Shown: positions 54,051 to 64,000 of the stretch, piece after piece
How the letters are laid out: each line of letters opens with the position of its first letter
How positions within the stretch are numbered: position 1 is the stretch's first letter
DNA from: Demequina oxidasica
GTDB lineage: Bacteria > Actinomycetota > Actinomycetes > Actinomycetales > Demequinaceae
DNA: 64,000 nt
Direction of reading: 5' to 3'
Assembly: GCF_000975115.1 (NCBI RefSeq)
Contig: NZ_BBRE01000001.1
Span: 1,145,322 to 1,209,321, forward strand
Program-made: the position numbers and the translations under genes
The notes under the pieces: generated by a model
The model's input: only the letters and a program-made list of their open reading frames with translations
Database searches by the model: none
Told to the model about the DNA's origin: nothing

Positions 54051-55202
54051 CTAGTCGAAGCTGCCTTCGCCGGCTGCGGCCGGCTTGCCGTCCTTGCTCG
54101 ACTTTGGCGTGCGAGCGACCGTGTCCCGGTCAAAGGTCCGCAGGTTGTCCAGCGACTTCTTCTTGGAGAAGGCGACCAGGGCATCGGGCTGGGCGTAGCC
54201 CACAGCGAGCAGCATGATCACGCGCTCATGCGGCTTGAGGCGCAGTGTCTTGGCCATGCGACCCTCGAGCGGCTCGAAGTCCGGCCAGTTAATGCACGAC
54301 GAGCTCAGCCCAAGAGTCTCGAGCGCGTAGATGAAGCCCATGGTCGCGAGCGACGCGTCGATGTACGGCACGTGGCGGTCGCGTGGGGAGAAGTAGTTGG
54401 ACAGGTCGCCCTTGATCACAATGACCGTGGGAATCTGGTGCGCGTAGCCGGTCGCGCCGAACGGGATGCCGGCCACCTGCTGGACCGTCTCGGGGTCGTC
54501 GAACACCAGGTACTCGTATGGAAGGCGATTGCATGCGGACGGCGATTGGCGAGCGACCAGCAGCGCCTTGTCGATCAGCTCGCGCTCCACGGGGCGGTCC
54601 TGGAACCAGCGCACGGAGCGGCGCGACTCGGCGAGCTGCAGGATCTGCTCGTAGGTGATGTCCGTCTTGGGCAGGTCGCCCTGCGGGTACGGGTGGACGG
54701 AGGCGGGGGTGCCGTAGCGCGGCAGCGACTCGAAGACTTCTCGGGATCGCGCAACCGAGGCATCATCGCCCGTCACGATCTCGAAGTACTCGGCCAGAAC
54801 GTCGTGCGCCCACTGCATCTCGCCGGCGTCCAAGTTGGACACGGACGCGGGACGCTTGAGCGCCTTCGCGTAGAACTCGACGGTCTCCTCGATGTAGTCA
54901 CGGGCGAACACGTCGCGCCGCGGCTGCATCAGGATGCCCTTCTCCAGCCGGTGCACGTTGCGGCGCAACTCGACGTGAGTGGACCGGTCCTTGCCGAGGT
55001 TCTTGTAATAGGCGCGGCGTCCCGACAGCACGGCCCACTGCTCGCGGTTCTGCGTGAAGAAGCCGGGGATGGAGTAGATCGTGGCGCCGAGGCGGGAGGA
55101 CCCGCCCAGTTCCAGCACCGCGCGGTTGGCGCCGTTGTAGGTCTTGCGGATGACGGGCACCGCGAGGGCGTTCTTGGCGACCTTCTTGAGCTTGCCGAGC
55201 AT
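54051..55202 (-). CDS. Nitroreductase-family protein in the polysaccharide operon
   Basis: The 383-residue protein has about 170 extra N-terminal residues before a nitroreductase-type FMN domain (AESRRSVRWFQDRPV, ARQSPSACNRLPYE, and SLATMGFIYALETLGLSSSCINW). The N-terminal part (RNVHRLEKGILMQPRR) is typical of nitroreductase-like proteins found in glycan gene clusters. The reaction is unknown; a redox modification of a sugar or lipid carrier is possible. Its ATG shares one base with the GT2 stop. Confidence 0.82.
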   Translation of the reverse strand: MLGKLKKVAKNALAVPVIRKTYNGANRAVLELGGSSRLGATIYSIPGFFTQNREQWAVLSGRRAYYKNLGKDRSTHVELRRNVHRLEKGILMQPRRDVFARDYIEETVEFYAKALKRPASVSNLDAGEMQWAHDVLAEYFEIVTGDDASVARSREVFESLPRYGTPASVHPYPQGDLPKTDITYEQILQLAESRRSVRWFQDRPVERELIDKALLVARQSPSACNRLPYEYLVFDDPETVQQVAGIPFGATGYAHQIPTVIVIKGDLSNYFSPRDRHVPYIDASLATMGFIYALETLGLSSSCINWPDFEPLEGRMAKTLRLKPHERVIMLLAVGYAQPDALVAFSKKKSLDNLRTFDRDTVARTPKSSKDGKPAAAGEGSFD

Positions 55203-56260
55203 CAGGCGTCGCCTTCCGTGGCGGGTGAGGTGGTCGTGGCGGCCGATGCCTCGGCAGGCTTCGCAGGAACAGAGGGCTTGGCGGCGCGGAATCCCGGCAA
55301 AGTGTGCTCGGCGATGCGCGACGGCCCGTACTGCTGCTCACGCAGCCTCTCGAGTGTCTCCTCGTGCAGGATGCGGTTGTTGCGCATCAGGTCCGACAGC
55401 ACTCCGAGGGCTAACGCGAGGACAGCGACCACGATCATCGCGGAGCCAAAGATGAGCGACTGAATGTGGTTGCCGTCGTTGCCTGCGATCCGCAGCACCA
55501 GGAAGCGCACGAACGGGAACAGGCCGATCAGCCCAAAGACCGCCGCGATGGTCGCGAACAGCGTCCACGGGCGGTACATCGTGTACGAGCGCAGGATCGC
55601 TTGGCCGGACTTCAGCATGTGCTCAAAGTTGTTGGAGAACAGGCGGGACTCGCGAGTCTTGGCGTTGGTGTCGATCGGCACGGAGATGATCGCGAGGCGC
55701 TTGTTGCCCGCCTGGATGATGGTCTCCATGCAGTAGCTGAACTGCGTCACGATGTTGAGGCGATACAGCGAGTAGCGAGAGTAGGCGCGGAAGCCGGACG
55801 CGGCATCGGGCAACTTGGTACCCGCCGCCTTGTTGACGACCCACGAACCGAACCGCTGCATCGTCTTCTTGAAGGGTGAGAAGTGTTCGATGGTGTGCGT
55901 TTGGCGGTCGCCGATCACGATGTCGGCTTGACCGGTGACGATGGGGGCGACCAGGTCGCCGATGCGGTCGCCGGGGTACTGGTTGTCGCCGTCGGTGTTG
56001 ACGACGATGTCGGCGCCGATGCTCAGGGCGTACTCGACGCCATCGCGGAAAGAACGTGCTAGCCCCATGTTGCGGGCGTGGCGGACGATGTGGGTGACGC
56101 CGTGCTCGCGGGCGACCTCGACGGTGCGGTCCGTGGAGCCGTCATCGATGATCACAATCTCGATCTGGTCCACGCCGTCAATGCGGGTCGGCAGGGACTC
56201 GAGCACGCTCGCGAGCGTGGACTCCTCGTTGAGGCAGGGGACCTGGATGACGACCTTCAC
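55202..56260 (-). CDS. Family 2 glycosyltransferase (intact copy)
   Basis: The 352-residue protein has a GT-A domain (VPCLNEESTLASVLESL, VIIDDGSTDRTVEVA, VNTDGDNQYPGD) of the dolichyl-phosphate-mannose-synthase type, then two membrane segments near the C-terminus and a soluble tail. It would add a sugar to a lipid carrier on the cytoplasmic face. It is the first gene of the operon. The stretch 55718-56228 has a near-identical partner at 63490-64000. Confidence 0.92.
   Translation of the reverse strand: MKVVIQVPCLNEESTLASVLESLPTRIDGVDQIEIVIIDDGSTDRTVEVAREHGVTHIVRHARNMGLARSFRDGVEYALSIGADIVVNTDGDNQYPGDRIGDLVAPIVTGQADIVIGDRQTHTIEHFSPFKKTMQRFGSWVVNKAAGTKLPDAASGFRAYSRYSLYRLNIVTQFSYCMETIIQAGNKRLAIISVPIDTNAKTRESRLFSNNFEHMLKSGQAILRSYTMYRPWTLFATIAAVFGLIGLFPFVRFLVLRIAGNDGNHIQSLIFGSAMIVVAVLALALGVLSDLMRNNRILHEETLERLREQQYGPSRIAEHTLPGFRAAKPSVPAKPAEASAATTTSPATEGDA
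55718..56228. repeat. Duplicated segment, copy A (within the GT2 gene)
   Basis: Bases 55718-56228 align collinearly with 63490-64000 at an offset of 7772, with long identical runs (for example the roughly 100 bases from 55799). The alignment reaches the window edge, so the repeat may extend further. Confidence 0.9.
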
Positions 56261-56312: not shown

Positions 56313-56984
56313 TTAGTCGCTGCCTTGGATAGTGGTGGCGGCGTTGCTGGCCTTCTGCCACGCATCGGACACTTCAATGTTTCCAGCTTGTACCTCTCGG
56401 AGAACTGAGACCACTGCCGCGGTGATCTCGGCGTCTTCGGGTGTTCCGGGGCGAACTTCGGGCATTTCGGTCACGGCCTGAGAGAATATTTCGCCGGTGG
56501 GAGCGTCACTGAATGCTGGGTTAGTCATCTCTTTGATGTTGGCATCGTCGTAGAGGGCCGGCCGGGAGGGGATTTGGCCCGTGTCGTGGAGGACGCGTAG
56601 TTGCTGTTCGGGCTGGATTAGCCACTCAACAAAGTCGTAAGCGGCCGTCGTAGTTGCGTCGTCGAACTGGTCGGGGATAGCGAGGAATGATCCACCTGCA
56701 TTTCCGCCAGGTCCGGGTAGGTCGGCGATGTCCCACACCACCTCTTCATCGCTTCCGGCAGACACACCTTCGATGTAATCAAGCATCCATATTGGGCACA
56801 ACATCACAGCGAAAGTGCCGTCAGCGATGCCAGTGTTCCATTCGTCGGACCACTGCTGGGCACCTGCGGACTGGTCGGCTTCGATAGTGCCGAGTGCCAG
56901 GTCGAATGCTGCCTTGCTGGAGTCGATGTCGAGAGCGCCTCGGGGGTCATGCCAGGAGTGGCCTGCTCCAAGTTCCACAGACAC
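56313..56984 (-). pseudogene. 5'-truncated ABC sugar-binding protein
   Basis: The reading frame corresponds to the C-terminal half of a family 1 solute-binding protein (ALDIDSSKAAFDLALG, GPGGNAGGSFLAIPDQ, YDFVEWLIQPEQQL, and a C-terminal SDAWQKASNAATTIQ). There is no signal peptide or N-terminal lobe: similarity stops at about 56963, where the sequence changes to the RHS gene on the other strand. It probably lost its 5' half and promoter in a rearrangement. Confidence 0.78.
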
Positions 56985-59900
56985 GGATTACCAAGTCGCG
57001 CAAATTGCAGCCGGGGTGACTTCACCGGAGGTTCTCAGTAGTGCAACGGAGGTGCGGGCTACATCGTCGAAGACGACCGAGCGTGAGCCGGACACTTCTT
57101 GGCTGCGGACCACTACGTCAGCGACGACCTATACACCAGAAGGCCTGCCAGATCGCACGACAATGGTTACCAGCGTGGGAGGGGATGTTCACACTCAATG
57201 TGACGACAGTGACTACGTGTGGAACGTGTCCGATGCAACCGGGGCGGCCAAGGGATACTTCACCACAGCCGGATGGAATGGAAAGTACTTTATCGTCGCA
57301 ACATCCGCGAGCCGTTCCTACGAGGGCAGTTGTACGACAGGGATTTTGACTGGGCGCTCAGAAACGCTCTTTGACGGTGCCACGAACCAGTCCTCCAACA
57401 GGCCGACAGCCGCCTTGGCGACTACCGAGTCATCCTGGGCAAACGGATCCACGATGGTCGACTCGAAGGCGACTTATGACTCTCGAGGACGAGTCCTGAC
57501 GGCGCAAGGGCCCAACGAGGTAGGAACAAATAAGAAGACGACCTGGGCCTACACGCGTGGGGCGAACGGCATCGTTAAAACCTCCGTCACGGACATCATG
57601 GGTCACGTCTCTTATACATGGCTCGAACCGTCACACGGCAACGTCACCAAATCCGAATCGGTCAACGGGGACTACACCCACTACAAATACGACCAACTTG
57701 GTTTGCTCACCGCGAGCTGGGCTCCTGCCGAATGGAACAACGCCACTGCCCCCACAGCAGATATCGTGCCCACCACATCTGCGGAGTACGAAATCTACGC
57801 GCCAGGCGGTGCCATCCGCACCACCCCCGTCGCCGTGATGACTGCCCAATACTCAGGCAAGGATGCCAACGGTGATCATCAGTGCGTCGCGGAGGCTTGC
57901 TTCGTGCGACGTTCTTACACTTACCTCGACGGATTCGGTCGCGAACGCGAGAGTCAAGCGGTAGCCCCCGATGGTTCAGGCGGTCGCACAGTAACAGCGA
58001 CTCAATACGACGACCGAGGTCTCGTGGCACGCACAAGTGCACCGTTCTTCAACGCGGCTGCCGCGCAGTTTGACTCCGGCTTGGTGAACCCAGACTTCAC
58101 GGCACTCGATTCATACACGGAGAATACGTACGACTGGGCAGGACGCACGATCGAGTCCAGTCTCATGAGTGTGGGCACCTCCGTGCGTGGGACCTCGACA
58201 CAGTATCTGGGTGACACGACGCAGACCACGGCGCCTACGGGTGCGATCACGGAAGTCGCCACCGACGCGCTTGAGCGGATGACTGACCTATATGTCCACC
58301 CCGACAGTGGTTACGACCGCACAGAGGCGCTGCATACGCACTATACGTATGACACTGTTGAGAACGGTTCAACGGTAGCCGTGACCGACCCGGACTCCCA
58401 CGACACCGTGATCGATGCAGATCTGCTTGGCCGGCGCACAGCGATGTCGGACCCAGATGCCGGTGATTCCACCTATACCTATGACGTTGCGGGACAGTTG
58501 CTTGGTGTGAACACCGAGGCTGGCACCACAGCGATGACTTATGACGATCTGGGCCGTATGCTGACCCGCACGTCCGCGGCGCCCGCCGGTACCGCGTCAT
58601 CGTCGGCAGAGTGGACATATGATCAGGCTGGCCATGTTGGTCAGACTGCCACGGAAACGTCGACAACGTCTGTGGCTGGCGCTAACTTCGTTACGACGAA
58701 GTCCTTTGACTATGACGCGTTGCATCGCTCGGAGTCGTCGACGGTGACGTTGCCGACGTCGGCTTCTTTGGGTGAGTTATCGGGACATTCGTATACTCGC
58801 TCTGTGGGGTATGACTCGGTGGGTCAGGTGGATGACGTGAGTTTGCCTGCCGCGGGTGGGATTGGCGCGGAGACGGTGAGCACGGGCTACAACCTTTTTG
58901 GTGCCCCGGTGTCATTGGAAGCGGGCTCGACGTCTTTGGTGACGGGGATGACGGTGTCGGGGGTTGGTCGTTTGCTCACCCGTGACTATGGCAACGGGGT
59001 GACTCGTCGGTTGGCGTGGAACGGCTCCGACGGGGCGTTGGACTCTGCCGAGGCGTTCTACACCAATGCCGGTGTCGATACCCACGTGCAGTACGACGTG
59101 TATGGCCGTGATGGTGCCGGCAGGGTGACGTCTATTGATGATCTGGTCACTAAAGATGCGGGTACGGCGGCGGAGCATGAGATTTCTCAGTGCTTCACGT
59201 ATGACGGGTTTGATCGGTTGAGTTCGGCGTGGACGGTTGATCCGTCTTCAGATCCTTGTGCCAGTGGTGCGCCGGACACGTCAGAGGATTATTGGGCGGT
59301 TGACTCCACTGGCTATGCGGCTTCGTGGAACTATTCGCCTTCCGGAACCGTGGCCGATCACACGCTGTGGTCTGCTGTGGAAGGCGTTGTCACTGCTGCG
59401 ACTCGTGACTACACCTTTGGGGATTCCGATCACGCGCACGCAGTGACAGATGTGAGTGATGGGGAAACCTCAGCGAGCTACACGTATGACGAGGCTGGGC
59501 GCATGACGGACCGGGACATCGCCGGGGTGGACATGGACCTCGTGTGGGATGTGCTGTCGAACCTCACACAGACAACCACAGGTGGGGTCAGCGAAAGCTA
59601 CCTGTACGACGCTTCCGGTCAACGAGTCGCCGCCATTCGAGACAGCTCAGCGATCGCCTACTTCGGAGACACGGAAATAACCGACCCGAACACCAGCGCT
59701 TCGGTGACTGGAGATGTGACGGCGACACGGTTCTACTCGTACGGTGGTGTCACGGTCGCGATGCGGGACGCATCAGGGTTGACTTACCTGTTGGGTGACG
59801 TGCAAGGCTCAGCAACCATCAGCATCGCTGACGGTGACCCGTCGACCGCGACGCTGAACCGCAACGCCTACACCCCTTACGGGGAAGCGCGCGGCGACGA

Positions 59901-60900
59901 CAACCTCGCCACCGACCACGGTTGGTTGGGTCAGGTTGAGGACGGCTCCACAGGTCTCACATACTTGAACGCCCGCTACTATGACCCCCAGCTCGGACGG
60001 TTCCTCAGTCCTGACCCCCTCATGAGCCTCACCGACCCACGCACCCTGGACGCGTACCGGTATGCGGATAACAACCCCGTGTCCTATAGCGACCCGTCGG
60101 GTTTGCGTCCCGATTGCTCGGGACTGTCAGGGAGTTCGTTGAGTCAATGTAGGGGCGGCGGCTCATCCGCGCCGTACTGGACAAAAACGGGCCAGAAAGC
60201 GAACACCTACAAGAAGACGCCTGCCTACGACACCACTAACGGCAGGACCGCGCGTAGTTACACAAAACCAAAGCCCAAAACAACAAGTGCGCCGTCAACC
60301 ACAGGTACACCTGTCCGAAAAGTAGGCTCTATTCCAAAGGCGCCCGGCGTGGGGACTGTAATAGTGGGCGCCTTTATAGACACTGAGATGGCAGGATTGG
60401 TAGGAAATATTAGATCAGCGGGTGATAATCGCGGCTTTGACTCCTCCAGAACAGTTGAGGATTCCAGGTTTAGCGTTTCAGCGAATTTTGATAGCGGAGA
60501 AGTAGCTTTGAAGGTGTCGCAATCCTGCAAGTTGGCAAATCACACGGACTGTTCGGATGCTACTCAAGGTGGAATCGTCTTGTACAGAGTACAAGCACGG
60601 AACTCAGGTCCTATGCTGGATGGTCAATATGGTTTCCAGGTGGACTTCTCGAAGTCCAATCCAGCTGTGGACTTTTCTCCGCCGTTAGATCTCACGATCC
60701 GTGTCATCCCCACTACCGATGGCCGAGTTCAAGTCACGGTAATGGGTGACGCCTATCCATCAATTGAAGCTTATCGAGTTGATTCATCGGGCAAGGTTCA
60801 CACACTGATTCAATCGCACGCTGTATTTGAAAAGACGGAGCAAGGTTCACTAGTTCTCTTTGCGCCGGGGGGCGCATTGCGCGGAAGAACCACGGGTTAA
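56975..60900 (+). pseudogene. 5'-truncated RHS/YD-repeat protein with variable C-terminal domain
   Basis: An open frame of more than 1300 codons contains many YD repeats (TYDSRGRVLTAQG, YDQLGLLT, YTYDVAGQLLG, YDDLGRML) and ends the core with the RHS motif YLNARYYDPQLGRFLSPDPL (near 59,960-60,020). After NPVSYSDPSGL a unique C-terminal region of about 260 residues follows, with a Thr/Lys/Pro linker and a beta-rich domain. In intact RHS proteins this region is a toxin. The frame continues upstream to 56815, but that part is only the antisense of the binding-protein fragment, so the native N-terminus, secretion signal and promoter are missing. Base use becomes more AT-rich from about 60,350. Confidence 0.75.
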
Positions 60901-60901
60901 A

Positions 60902-61336
60902 ATGAATTATAGTATTCGAAAGCGCGGGTTGCCTGTCGCCTTCATTCTGTACCTACTTGGATCCTGGGCCATGCTCGTAAGCATGCTTACCATCACCTTT
61001 TACTTTGTGGGATTCATCTTGATACCCATTTGGATCTTTATGATGGTGTACATGGGGATTGCTGTTCGAGAGAATCATCCCAGCGCATTTCTATTCGCGC
61101 AGATATGTGCCGCAATAGTCGTTTCGGTTCTCGCCTCCTCGGCGGTAGTATTTATGATTAATATATCCGAATTCTCTCCCTCGTTATCGTTTGCGGAGGT
61201 GATTTTCGAGGACGGGGACTCGGCGAGCGTCGCTGCGGGCATAGCTTACTTGGCTTCTGTAAGCAGTTTATTGTTGGGCGCAGCGGTTTCTATAGTTTCT
61301 GGCGTAAGAGCGAGGAAAGAGTCGGCGGTGCCATAG
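60902..61336 (+). CDS. Four-pass membrane protein, possible immunity protein
   Basis: The 144-residue protein has about four hydrophobic segments (VAFILYLLGSWAMLVSMLTI; FVGFILIPIWIFMMVYMGI; IVVSVLASSAVVFMI; LASVSSLLLGAAVSIVSGV). It begins 1 base after the RHS stop and is similarly AT-rich, so the two were acquired together. Genes directly behind RHS C-termini often encode immunity proteins; a membrane immunity protein would suit a toxin that acts on membranes or the envelope. No family is recognised. Confidence 0.7.
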   Translation: MNYSIRKRGLPVAFILYLLGSWAMLVSMLTITFYFVGFILIPIWIFMMVYMGIAVRENHPSAFLFAQICAAIVVSVLASSAVVFMINISEFSPSLSFAEVIFEDGDSASVAAGIAYLASVSSLLLGAAVSIVSGVRARKESAVP

Positions 61337-61774
61337 CCTCGTAGCGACGGATGGAAATTCTGTGCGGCGAATGTTGACGCTCCAAAGTCGGGCGCATAAC
61401 CCGGACAGCGTCATGTAGAGATAGTCGGATAGCCAGATCTATGCCTTGTTAGAGCGCGACAACACGATCAACTGGCGCGAACACGAACGTAACTAATTGA
61501 TTTTGATGCCTATAAGACCGGCAATGCATACCCCAACGCAGCCTGTGCGCGCCGCAGTTCGCATGAGCGAAGCAGCCTCAGCATCGGACGGCAGGGCGTT
61601 GGGGCACTCCCTGGTGATTGGCAGCACATCGTACGGTGTCGTCGGCATTGACGTTGCCGACACCGGTTTATTTTGGTGAATAGCAGTTTCGTAGGCCGTC
61701 AGAATTCATTTCGTCGAGGCGGTCCGCAGCGTTGAGTATCAGAGGTCGGGACTGCTGAACGATTTGGTGACAGT
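61337..61774. other. Gene-free stretch between the membrane protein and the IS element
   Basis: No convincing gene is seen in these 438 bases. A short coding-like fragment at about 61437-61496 ends in ALLERDNTINWREHERN and a stop, and may be a gene remnant. The composition is mixed, as expected at an insertion hot spot. Confidence 0.5.
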
Positions 61775-61795
61775 TTGACCTGCCCCCAGGTTTGG

Positions 61796-62695
61796 TTACC
61801 TCGTGAGGTGTGTCGTTCTGGCGTGGGTGGTGTTCATTTCGGACTGTGTTTCAAAGTCGACTGGGGTGAGGTAGTTGATGCTGGAGTGGCGTCGTGCTCG
61901 GTTGTGCCAGATCTCGATGTACTCGAAGATTGCGTTGGAGAGCTCGAGTCGTGTATTCCACCGTTGACGGTTCAGCAGCTCGATCTGCATTGACGACCAG
62001 AACGATTCCATCATTGCATTGTCGAGTCCGTCGCCCACGGTGCCGAACGAAGGCATGAGACCTGCACTCCGGATTCGGTTGCCGAAGGCCCAAGAAGTGA
62101 ATTGGGCTCCATGATCTGCGTGAACAATACCGCCGGGTGCGGGATTGCGGGTCTTGATCGCCATGTCCAAGGCGCTGAGAACGAGCCGGGTGTCTTGGCT
62201 GGAGTCGATGGACCATCCGACGATTTTGCGGCTGAAGGCATCGAGCACGCAGCAACAGTAAAGCCAACCTTCACGAGTGCGATGTTGCGTGATATCGGTG
62301 ACCCACAGCTCGTTTGGCCGTGACCGGTGGAACTTTCGATTGACGAGGTCATCAGCGGTGACGACGCCACGCAACCGTTTGATCCGCGAGGGTCCTGGCA
62401 GACCACGCAGCCCCTCAATGGTCATCAGAGTGCCCACCAGGTGGTCGCTGACGCTGACGCCCATCCCAAGCGTGAGTTCGGCATGGACCCGCCGGTATCC
62501 GTAAGTCCCCTTGGACGACAGATGGACCTCACGGATGAGGCCGGTCAACCACTCCCGCCGCATCGCAGTGGGCGAGGTTGAGCGATTGCGGTAGCGGTAG
62601 TAACCGGGCTTCGACACACCCAGGATGCGACAGCATGTCAGGACTGGATGTCCGGCGGCGACAAGGACGTCGTGTCCCCTAAGTGAATCCTTTTG
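61796..62695 (-). CDS. IS3-family transposase OrfB (DDE integrase domain)
   Basis: This is the catalytic part of the transposase, reached by a -1 frameshift from orfA. It has the HTH_21 region (RREWLTGLIREVH, GTYGYRRVHAEL) and an rve-type integrase core with WVTDITQH (first Asp), GIVHADHGAQFTS (second Asp) and DNAMMESFWSSM (catalytic Glu), followed by the usual YNRRRxH-like HNRARRHSSI. All three catalytic residues are present, so the enzyme may be active. The frame also continues upstream in the orfA region without meaning. Confidence 0.9.
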   Translation of the reverse strand, partial: QKDSLRGHDVLVAAGHPVLTCCRILGVSKPGYYRYRNRSTSPTAMRREWLTGLIREVHLSSKGTYGYRRVHAELTLGMGVSVSDHLVGTLMTIEGLRGLPGPSRIKRLRGVVTADDLVNRKFHRSRPNELWVTDITQHRTREGWLYCCCVLDAFSRKIVGWSIDSSQDTRLVLSALDMAIKTRNPAPGGIVHADHGAQFTSWAFGNRIRSAGLMPSFGTVGDGLDNAMMESFWSSMQIELLNRQRWNTRLELSNAIFEYIEIWHNRARRHSSINYLTPVDFETQSEMNTTHARTTHLTR

Positions 62696-62972
62696 GGTGG
62701 GGCTTGTCCTCCCCAACAAGACTCGCCGCGACCTGCAAAATCTCGACCTCACGCTCGAGCTCTCGAATCCGTTTTCGTGCTGCCTTAAGTTCTGCGTTTT
62801 CTCCGGTGGTGATGCCCGAGATCTCGCCATGGTCGACGCGGTCTTGGCGCACCCAATTACGCAAGCAGCCCTCGCTAACGCCCAGGCTAGGGGCAACAGC
62901 GGTGATGGGTTTGCCGGCACGCACCAACGCGACCGCTCGGTAACGAAACTGGGCAGGATAGGCCTTCGGCAT
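62679..62972 (-). CDS. IS3-family transposase OrfA
   Basis: The 97-residue protein has an N-terminal helix-turn-helix (YPAQFRYRAVALVRAGKP, SLGVSEGCLRNWVRQ) and a C-terminal leucine-zipper-like helix (ENAELKAARKRIRELEREVEIL). The start is ATG 62972. Near its end lies the heptamer C CCA AAA (plus-strand TTTTGGG, 62691-62697), where ribosomes can slip -1 into orfB before the stop at 62679. Confidence 0.9.
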   Translation of the reverse strand: MPKAYPAQFRYRAVALVRAGKPITAVAPSLGVSEGCLRNWVRQDRVDHGEISGITTGENAELKAARKRIRELEREVEILQVAASLVGEDKPHPKGFT

Positions 62973-63041
62973 GTTCAGACTCCTTGTACTCGAGCCAAAA
63001 CAACACTCTGCCACTGGTAACCAAACTATGGGGCAGGTCAA

Positions 63042-63453: not shown

Positions 63454-64000
63454 TTAGTTTTGGGCCGCGCGTCTGATTTGCGTTGTATTGATGGTCTCCA
63501 TGCAGTAGCTGAACTGCGTCACGATGTTCAGGCGGTACAGCGAATACCGGGAGTAGGCGCGAAAGCCGGACGCGGCATCGGGCAACTTGGTACCCGCCGC
63601 CTTGTTGACGACCCACGAACCGAACCGCTGCATCGTCTTCTTGAAGGGTGAGAAGTGTTCGATGGTGTGTGTCTGGCGGTCGCCCATGACGATGTCCGCG
63701 TCACCGGCGATGATGGGGGCCACCAGGTCGCCGATGCGGTCGCCGGGGTATTGGTTGTCGCCGTCGGTGTTGACGACGATGTCGGCGCCGATGCTCAGGG
63801 CGTACTCGACGCCATCGCGGAAAGAACGTGCTAGCCCCATGTTGCGGGCGTGGCGGACGATGTGGGTGACGCCGTGCGCGCGGGCGACCTCGACAGTGCG
63901 GTCCGAAGAACCGTCGTCGATGATCACGATCTCAATTTCATCCACGCCGTCGAGGTGCGTGGGTAGGCCTTCGAGCACGCTCGCGAGCGTGGACTCCTCG
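63454..64000 (-). pseudogene. Truncated second copy of the GT2 glycosyltransferase
   Basis: The frame enters from beyond base 64000 (reading EESTLASVLEGL) and matches the intact GT2 protein closely through VIIDDGSSDRTVEVA, VNTDGDNQYPGD and QFSYCMETI, then diverges at 63490 into 11 unrelated residues (NTTQIRRAAQN) and a stop. The C-terminal 145 or so residues, including both membrane segments, are missing. It is unlikely to be functional. Its 5' end lies outside the window. Confidence 0.88.
63490..64000. repeat. Duplicated segment, copy B
   Basis: This is the partner of 55718-56228 in the same orientation. The left boundary is abrupt at 63490, immediately after unrelated AT-richer sequence. 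Confidence 0.9.

What the first reader, a model, noticed from the sequence alone, without database searches (positions are those of the whole stretch)
60106..61336. Unrecognised RHS C-terminal domain with an adjacent membrane protein: possible toxin-immunity pair
After the conserved core ending near 60,105, a roughly 260-residue unique domain of lower GC follows, and a four-pass membrane protein starts 1 base after its stop. This is the standard place for toxin and immunity genes. I recognise no known toxin motif; the domain has a single Cys pair and a GDAYPSIEAYRVD segment.
Basis: partly seen in the sequence, partly recalled or inferred. Interest (0 to 1): 0.55.

Follow-up and report, generated by a model that had tools for sequence, protein, structure and literature searches.

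The report
New secreted toxin with membrane immunity partner
The tail of this RHS protein belongs to a widespread but unstudied family of exported proteins that almost always sit beside a small membrane protein, which points to a new kind of antibacterial toxin paired with a membrane-embedded antidote.

Summary
After the RHS core (ends 60105) comes a 264-residue tail of lower GC, and a 144-residue protein with four hydrophobic segments starts one base after its stop. The last ~190 residues are not unique. They form an all-beta domain of the DUF3238 superfamily (AlphaFold model against 3c5p: Z 14.3; Pfam just over cut-off). Relatives are the C-termini of ESX-type "polymorphic toxins" in Mycobacteriales, of Sec-secreted proteins in other Actinomycetota, and of secreted proteins on Bacillota plasmids. 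Their leaders differ, but their neighbour is nearly always a small polytopic membrane protein: 74 of 85 mycobacterial-type loci against 9 of 270 control ORFs, 13 of 17 proteins in a second set, and 6 of 6 plasmid regions. In Bacillus the neighbour is UPF0715. RHS siblings in the same genus carry RNase/barstar and EndoU at the same slot. I conclude that this is an exported antibacterial toxin acting at the target's membrane, with a membrane immunity protein. Toxicity and mechanism are untested. The window copy is a 5'-truncated orphan RHS cassette without its secretion half. The kind is known (polymorphic toxin and immunity); the toxin family and its partner rule appear unreported.

The parts
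56980..60105 (+). 3' part of an RHS/YD-repeat gene (core and repeats); the N-terminal half with the secretion signal is missing
   Evidence: TIGR03696 4.7e-22, RHS_repeat 1.7e-7; relatives in frames of 2290-2873 aa in the genus; the frame 56815-56979 upstream is antisense to a gene fragment
60106..60318 (+). Variable linker between the RHS core and the C-terminal domain (two Cys, rich in T/K/P)
   Evidence: homology to relatives starts near tail residue 72
60319..60900 (+). DUF3238-like C-terminal domain, proposed toxin; no predicted transmembrane segment
   Evidence: PF11579 21.2-22.0 bits against cut-off 21.1; hmmsearch to 3c5p 3.8e-7; AlphaFold model pLDDT 76.4, Z 14.3 to 3c5p
60421..60438 (+). 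GDNRGF motif; G and R invariant in 74 of 74 aligned members, second position D or N in all
   Evidence: G, R and near-invariant D also in the 10-row cross-lineage alignment
60754..60774 (+). YPSIEAY motif; P and E invariant in 74 of 74 aligned members
60902..61336 (+). 144-aa protein with four hydrophobic segments, proposed immunity protein
   Evidence: no convincing family match; no convincing homologue in 149 genomes searched

Best explanation
The domain at 60319-60900 is an exported antibacterial toxin of the DUF3238 superfamily, and the product of 60902-61336 is its membrane-embedded immunity protein. The toxin works from outside the target cell, at or in the cytoplasmic membrane: it binds a membrane target or inserts, and compromises the membrane or an essential membrane process. 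The producer is protected by a polytopic membrane protein that meets the toxin there. The domain is a cassette carried by different delivery parts: RHS shell (here), ESX/WXG-type leaders (Mycobacteriales), plain Sec signal with Ig/FN3-like modules, and a B-lectin. The window copy is a 5'-truncated orphan RHS-tip cassette, a reservoir that could be recombined behind a complete RHS gene. Shown by computation: the domain family and fold, the leader diversity, the membrane-partner association, the toxin slot, the truncation. Inferred: toxicity, immunity, site of action, reservoir role.
For: Slot: siblings of this RHS core in the genus carry Ribonuclease+Barstar (2.5e-12/7.1e-18; 1.5e-6/4.7e-7) and EndoU (5.2e-13) at the same position. 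Homology: tblastn of the tail to M. abscessus prophage gene 63 'polymorphic toxin protein', 27.5% id, E 6e-5. Partner: 74 of 85 non-redundant loci have a downstream small ORF with 2 or more TM segments, against 9 of 270 control ORFs; 13 of 17 in the set scanned; 6 of 6 Bacillota/Arthrobacter plasmid regions read, one of them (Arthrobacter) only as an unannotated frame. Partner sequence diverges fast: at 65-75% domain identity the median partner identity is 31%, random 22%. Export context: a hydrophobic N-terminal stretch in 12 of 17 proteins; ESX-type modules EspA_EspE 9.5e-22 and DUF4226 1.6e-36. Fold: window and mycobacterial models both match 3c5p at Z 14.3 and 15.8, next best 5.3 and 4.8.
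Against: No toxicity data for this domain were found; the phage systems reported toxic in PMC10654092 (prophiGD43A-6, prophiGD17-1) were not among the three phage records holding the domain. No hydrophobic helix or known pore fold in the domain, so insertion is a guess. The window's partner has no sequence relative among 122 other partner ORFs (best blastp E 0.16) or UPF0715. The mycobacterial profile A4 did not find 3c5p by sequence, and Foldseek did not show it among its 50 best rows for the mycobacterial model. A phage protein (L048) carries the domain without a membrane partner. The window RHS lacks its N-terminal half.
Confidence: 0.66

Rival explanations
1. The pair is a toxin and immunity, but the toxin is an enzyme acting in the extracytoplasmic space on a lipid-linked or membrane-bound substrate (for example a cell-wall precursor), not a membrane-disrupting protein. 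The invariant R and E would be catalytic or substrate-binding.
For: Invariant G-D/N-x-R and P-x-x-E across 74 members and in the cross-lineage alignment; no hydrophobic segment; a mainly beta soluble domain.
Against: No enzyme fold matches: the best non-DUF3238 match is Taspase1 at Z 4.8-5.3, below the level that means anything. Conserved polar residues may be structural.
Confidence: 0.22
2. The membrane protein is not immunity but a receptor, anchor or export partner for a secreted DUF3238 protein that is not a toxin (surface display or signalling).
For: The association with a membrane protein is the main fact, and it alone does not say 'immunity'. DUF3238 proteins stand alone with fn3 modules in secreted proteins.
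Against: The partner changes sequence group while the domain is conserved, which does not suit an export or anchor machine. RHS siblings carry known toxins at the slot. The phage genes are annotated as toxin and immunity, though annotation is not proof.
Confidence: 0.1
3. The family reading is right but the window copy is an inert remnant: a 5'-truncated RHS fragment between duplicated glycosyltransferase pieces and an IS3-like element, neither secreted nor expressed.
For: The RHS ORF lacks about 1000 N-terminal residues; a partial glycosyltransferase duplicate (92.8% over 512 nt) and an IS3-like transposase lie around it; no promoter-like site found in 60000-61900.
Against: Domain and partner frames are intact, with all invariant residues kept. 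RHS-tip frames of 580 aa or less occur in G001, G033, G034, G041 and G044, some near contig ends, and orphan rhs-CT cassettes are known recombination donors (recalled).
Confidence: 0.35

Closest known systems
M. abscessus prophage polymorphic toxin cassettes (PEST systems), prophi62-3 gp63/gp62 and prophiGD91-2 gp116/gp115
   Same: Homologous C-terminal domain; toxin gene followed within 4-8 nt by a gene annotated as immunity protein, a small membrane protein in prophi62-3.
   Different: Delivered by a WXG100-type leader and ESX, not by RHS. The published text (PMC8092301 section 11; PMC10654092 section 8, both read) names no toxin domain of this type, and the word 'membrane' does not occur in the main text of PMC8092301.
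DUF3238 (PF11579), structure 3c5p
   Same: Same fold (Z 14.3 and 15.8), shared GDxRxF and FPxxExY motifs.
   Different: Family of unknown function; 0 papers in the library hold the word DUF3238. Only 1 of 74 members of alignment A4 matches the Pfam model at E 1.
TspA/TsaI of Staphylococcus aureus (PMC7456083, passages read)
   Same: Exported Gram-positive polymorphic toxin whose C-terminal domain acts on the membrane, with a polytopic membrane immunity protein that occurs in several copies.
   Different: Type VIIb substrate with DUF443 five-TM immunity proteins (the LXG label is recalled); no sequence relation seen here to either part.
CDI ionophore toxins with small membrane CdiI (PMC11630599, passages read)
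   Same: Toxin tips paired with small, very variable, hydrophobic immunity proteins.
   Different: Five-helix membrane-spanning toxin fold; here a mainly beta domain without hydrophobic helices.
RHS/YD polymorphic toxins of Actinomycetota (siblings in the same genus)
   Same: Same core, same slot, adjacent downstream gene.
   Different: Siblings checked carry RNase, EndoU or unassigned tips, with barstar as immunity protein in two.

Membership tests
RHS/YD-repeat polymorphic toxin | RHS-associated core directly before a variable tip | tested here: met
   TIGR03696 ends at residue 1097 = 60105; sibling cores carry different tips
RHS/YD-repeat polymorphic toxin | N-terminal secretion signal and complete RHS shell | tested here: not met
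   ORF of 1361 aa starts antisense to another gene; relatives are 2290-2873 aa. The window copy is an orphan tip, not a complete RHS toxin
RHS/YD-repeat polymorphic toxin | Tip is toxic and the neighbour protects | not testable with these tools
   needs expression; position and family evidence only
DUF3238 superfamily | Pfam PF11579 gathering score 21.1 bits | tested here: met
   21.2 bits for the tail and 22.0 for 60286-60897, marginal; 18.2 for the whole ORF, below
DUF3238 superfamily | Fold of the solved member 3c5p | tested here: met
   VIA-align Z 14.3, rmsd 3.2, 176 aligned; Foldseek E 3.7e-7
ESX-secreted polymorphic toxins (PEST) | WXG100/PE-PPE-like N-terminal leader | tested here: not met
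   no such leader matched in the window ORF; only the C-terminal domain is shared
Type VII LXG membrane-depolarising toxins (TspA type) | LXG leader | tested here: not met
   no LXG match in Pfam or NCBIfam scans of the ORF
Type VII LXG membrane-depolarising toxins (TspA type) | Depolarises membranes | not testable with these tools
   needs an assay
Type VII LXG membrane-depolarising toxins (TspA type) | Polytopic membrane immunity protein next to the toxin gene | tested here: met
   four segments in the 144-aa partner; immunity function itself untested
CDI ionophore toxins | Five-helix membrane-spanning bundle | tested here: not met
   model is mainly beta; maximum 19-residue hydropathy 1.47
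UPF0715 (partner in Bacillus) | Sequence match of the window partner to PF17094 | tested here: inconclusive
   no UPF0715 match in Pfam at E 10, no blastp match worth naming; membrane proteins diverge fast

The most novel reading that the evidence does not exclude
DUF3238 defines a superfamily of secreted antibacterial toxins with a mainly beta fold for which no other toxin of known structure was matched here. It is shared by Actinomycetota and Bacillota and moves between ESX, RHS, Sec/FN3 and lectin leaders, small mobilizable plasmids and prophages. It acts from outside on the membrane without hydrophobic helices. Its immunity proteins are rapidly diverging 3-6 TM proteins, and the Bacillus family UPF0715 would be one of these immunity families.
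Probability: 0.42. Interest if true: 0.76.

Novelty: new member of a known kind. Interest (0 to 1): 0.6.

Why it matters
It would give a function to two families of unknown function, DUF3238 and UPF0715, and would unify scattered "polymorphic toxin" and "hypothetical" genes in two phyla under one toxin-immunity rule that can be tested with one expression experiment. A soluble, mainly beta domain that needs a polytopic membrane antidote would be a mode of attack on Gram-positive cells with no described mechanism. It also names a likely role for cargo on small, mobilizable Bacillus plasmids such as pBSG3.

Tried and rejected
Known toxin families: Pfam, NCBIfam, PHROGs and PADLOC gave nothing for the tail beyond DUF3238 and chance hits (CcdA 0.056, FapE 0.086). 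Taspase1 similarity (Z 4.8-5.3) was set aside as too weak. Colicin- or CDI-type helical pores were set aside because the models are mainly beta and no segment is hydrophobic enough. A shared ancestry of all partner proteins could not be shown: blastp groups 123 partner ORFs (the window's included) into eight groups and eleven singletons, the window's a singleton. Homologues of the window partner among 149 related genomes: best other hit E 1.2e-3 over 62 residues inside a 785-aa frame, not convincing. Viral fold library with the mycobacterial model: nothing at E 0.001. tblastn of the lectin-type member against plasmids: no match. A first scan of genome contigs with the window domain alone found nothing. 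A close copy of this RHS in its own genome: none; the other RHS gene is about 30% identical. A literature search for the secreted class with six terms returned 0 papers; UPF0715 returned 0.

Limits of the counts: the 80 genome loci are the best 80 of 119 relatives and almost all Mycobacteriales. One search found a partner in 83 of 98 loci before removing near-duplicates; of 89 non-redundant ones, four with under 700 nt of 3' flank were dropped. Of the 11 misses, four (L033, L035, L047, L096) show frames with 2-3 TM segments by a looser look and were left as misses in the count; L086 is broken, L048 is a phage protein with a tape-measure-like end, the others are plain misses. Controls include spurious antisense ORFs, which may lower their rate. 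TM segments come from a plain hydropathy window, not a trained predictor. In one search the 17 proteins scanned include L172 and L177, which are the same genes as L024 and L003, and leave out L166-L171 and L175, which repeat earlier loci or the window; the four without partner are L176, L182, L021, L022. Of 12 plasmid records six were read; the six others are Bacillus velezensis records with the same identity and score. Of the sibling tips printed, eight and two partners were given to Pfam: three tips over cut-off, two below cut-off (Ntox44, DUF4258), three without match; both partners Barstar.

Full report
What is there. The RHS ORF spans 56815-60900. The RHS-associated core model ends at residue 1097, window 60105. 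A 264-residue tail follows, then an ATG one base after the stop that opens a 144-residue protein with four hydrophobic segments. GC falls from 59.6% (core) to 50.2% (domain) and 48.7% (partner), against 63.0% for the window.

The RHS gene is incomplete. Its first ~55 codons run antisense to a gene fragment (56313-56984, minus strand) that reads like the end of a solute-binding protein (recalled, not searched). A protein search found relatives of its core in 14 of 47 genomes of the family, own genome included. Five genomes (G018, G024, G028, G032, G034) have them in open frames of 2290-2873 aa, so about 1000 N-terminal residues are missing here. RHS-tip frames of 580 aa or less, some near contig ends, occur in G001, G033, G034, G041 and G044 in the same search. 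The window copy therefore looks like an orphan tip cassette, which in other RHS systems serves as a recombination donor (recalled).

The slot is a toxin slot. I read the tips that follow the same core in the sibling genomes and gave eight of them, with two partners, to Pfam. Two tips are Ribonuclease (PF00545), each followed by Barstar (PF01337); one is EndoU (PF14436). Ntox44 (one tip) and DUF4258 (one tip) scored below cut-off, and three tips had no match. The next genes commonly start within a few bases of the stop. So the position alone predicts toxin and immunity.

What the domain is. Pfam gives DUF3238 at 21.2 bits against a cut-off of 21.1, and 22.0 bits for 60286-60897. tblastn of the tail finds M. 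abscessus prophages prophi62-3 and prophi108-1 (27.5% identity, E 6e-5) and two Mycolicibacterium plasmids (E 0.01-0.02). In prophi62-3 the hit is the C-terminus of gene 63, annotated "polymorphic toxin protein with WXG motif", followed by "polymorphic toxin immunity protein" and "membrane protein". A profile from four members finds the domain in 17 of 394 genomes of the class and the solved structure 3c5p at 3.8e-7, with GDxRxF and FPxxExY shared. A wider profile finds it in 10 of 396 genomes of the phylum and 12 of 396 of the order; for genomes whose sequences are in the profile this is partly by construction. AlphaFold models of the window domain (pLDDT 76.4, pTM 0.75) and of a mycobacterial member (pLDDT 92.5, pTM 0.89) are mainly beta and match 3c5p at Z 14.3 and 15.8, far above the next match (5.3 and 4.8). 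Against this, the mycobacterial profile alone does not reach 3c5p by sequence, and Foldseek did not show it among its 50 best rows for the mycobacterial model. Across 74 aligned members G46, R49, G71, P158 and E161 (numbering from 60286) never vary and position 47 is D or N; G46, R49, G71, P158 and E161 also hold in a ten-row alignment across lineages. Only 1 of the 74 members, the window's, matches Pfam DUF3238, so the mycobacterial branch has no model in Pfam or NCBIfam that it reaches.

Leaders differ. Mycobacterial members carry ESX-type modules: DUF4226 1.6e-36, EspA_EspE 9.5e-22, Hydro_N_hd 9.8e-68 and a weak WXG100 match. In a second set of 17 proteins, mostly 360-475 aa and from Micrococcales and other Actinomycetota, 12 have an N-terminal signal-like stretch, and many have an Ig/FN3-like middle (the FN3 label is mine for these; Pfam fn3 is met in the Exiguobacterium and Priestia proteins). 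Two carry a B-lectin-like module (2e-7 for L021, just under cut-off). One IMG/VR phage protein (L048) carries the domain before a tail that reads like a tape-measure end (recalled), without a membrane partner.

The partner rule. In 98 loci from the search for related loci, 83 have a small ORF with two or more hydrophobic segments just downstream. After removing near-duplicates and loci with short 3' flanks, 74 of 85 have one, against 9 of 270 other long ORFs in the same loci; a stricter definition gives 52 of 85 against 2 of 270. Often there are two such genes in a row, sometimes one double-length gene of 5-6 segments (L085, L090, L123). In the set scanned, 13 of 17 have a 130-198 aa partner with 2-5 segments. 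In Bacillota and Arthrobacter, found by tblastn with a member from the window's genus (12 plasmid records), six regions were read. Bacillus amyloliquefaciens pBSG3, B. subtilis and B. licheniformis have a divergent UPF0715 gene with four segments (PF17094 1.3e-15 and 1.2e-17 for pBSG3 and B. licheniformis; the B. subtilis partner is the same protein record as in pBSG3). Exiguobacterium and Priestia have a four-segment gene downstream. Arthrobacter has an unannotated 98-codon frame with three segments.

The partners are not one visible sequence family: 123 partner ORFs, the window's included, fall into eight blastp groups and eleven singletons, and the window's partner is a singleton. Where two domains are 65-75% identical, their partners are at a median of 31%, with 22% expected by chance, and their leaders at 21% (86 pairs, 53 loci). 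A conserved cassette with swapped leaders and a fast-changing membrane neighbour fits toxin and immunity better than an export or anchoring pair.

How it most likely works. The Sec-type members have no visible entry module, and in the window and in lectin-type members a Cys pair lies in the domain; both fit action outside the cytoplasm. The repeated choice of a polytopic membrane protein as partner places the meeting point in the membrane. I therefore propose that the toxin acts on the target membrane from outside, by binding a membrane component or by inserting, and that immunity happens in the membrane. Known analogues are TspA/TsaI (PMC7456083, passages) and CDI ionophores with membrane CdiI (PMC11630599, passages). 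Unlike the CDI ionophores, which are helical bundles, this domain is mainly beta and has no hydrophobic helix. Whether the conserved R and E make it an enzyme is open, and that is the main rival.

Prior knowledge. The mycobacterial prophage members were already annotated as polymorphic toxins by their depositors. PMC8092301 (section 11 read, other passages) and PMC10654092 (section 8 read whole, passages) describe such cassettes; the second shows toxicity, relieved by immunity genes, for two systems (prophiGD43A-6, prophiGD17-1). The three phage records that hold this domain are others. PMC9934374 (passages) describes exchange of such cassettes. Searches for DUF3238 and UPF0715 returned no paper; BAS0735/3C5P/PF11579 returned only papers whose titles are off-topic (listing). 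PMC3448714 (passages) mentions pBSG3 only as a plasmid without resistance or virulence genes. Novelty is therefore at the level of a toxin family and its partner rule within a known kind of system.

Noticed in passing
window 55202-56260 and 63454-63999 (minus strand): A glycosyltransferase gene and a 3'-truncated partial copy of it flank the RHS cassette; 55717-56228 and 63489-64000 are 92.8% identical.
   Followed up: partly
window 61796-63041 (minus strand): IS3-like transposase pair (label recalled) downstream of the cassette; a 90% identical copy of part of it lies on contig C7 of the same genome.
   Followed up: partly
window 56313-56984 (minus strand): Fragment that reads like the C-terminal part of an ABC solute-binding protein (recalled), ending at the point where RHS homology begins; a likely recombination junction.
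   Followed up: no
L048 3240-4532: IMG/VR phage protein with the DUF3238-like domain joined to a tail that reads like a tape-measure end and no membrane partner. Its role in a virion would be worth a look.
   Followed up: no
L145 (G044) tip: Another RHS tip in the same family, weakly like Ntox44 (below cut-off), also followed by a small four-segment membrane protein.
   Followed up: no
L195, L199, L200 (Bacillus plasmids): UPF0715 membrane genes lie divergently beside secreted DUF3238 genes on Bacillus plasmids; UPF0715 may be an immunity family.
   Followed up: partly
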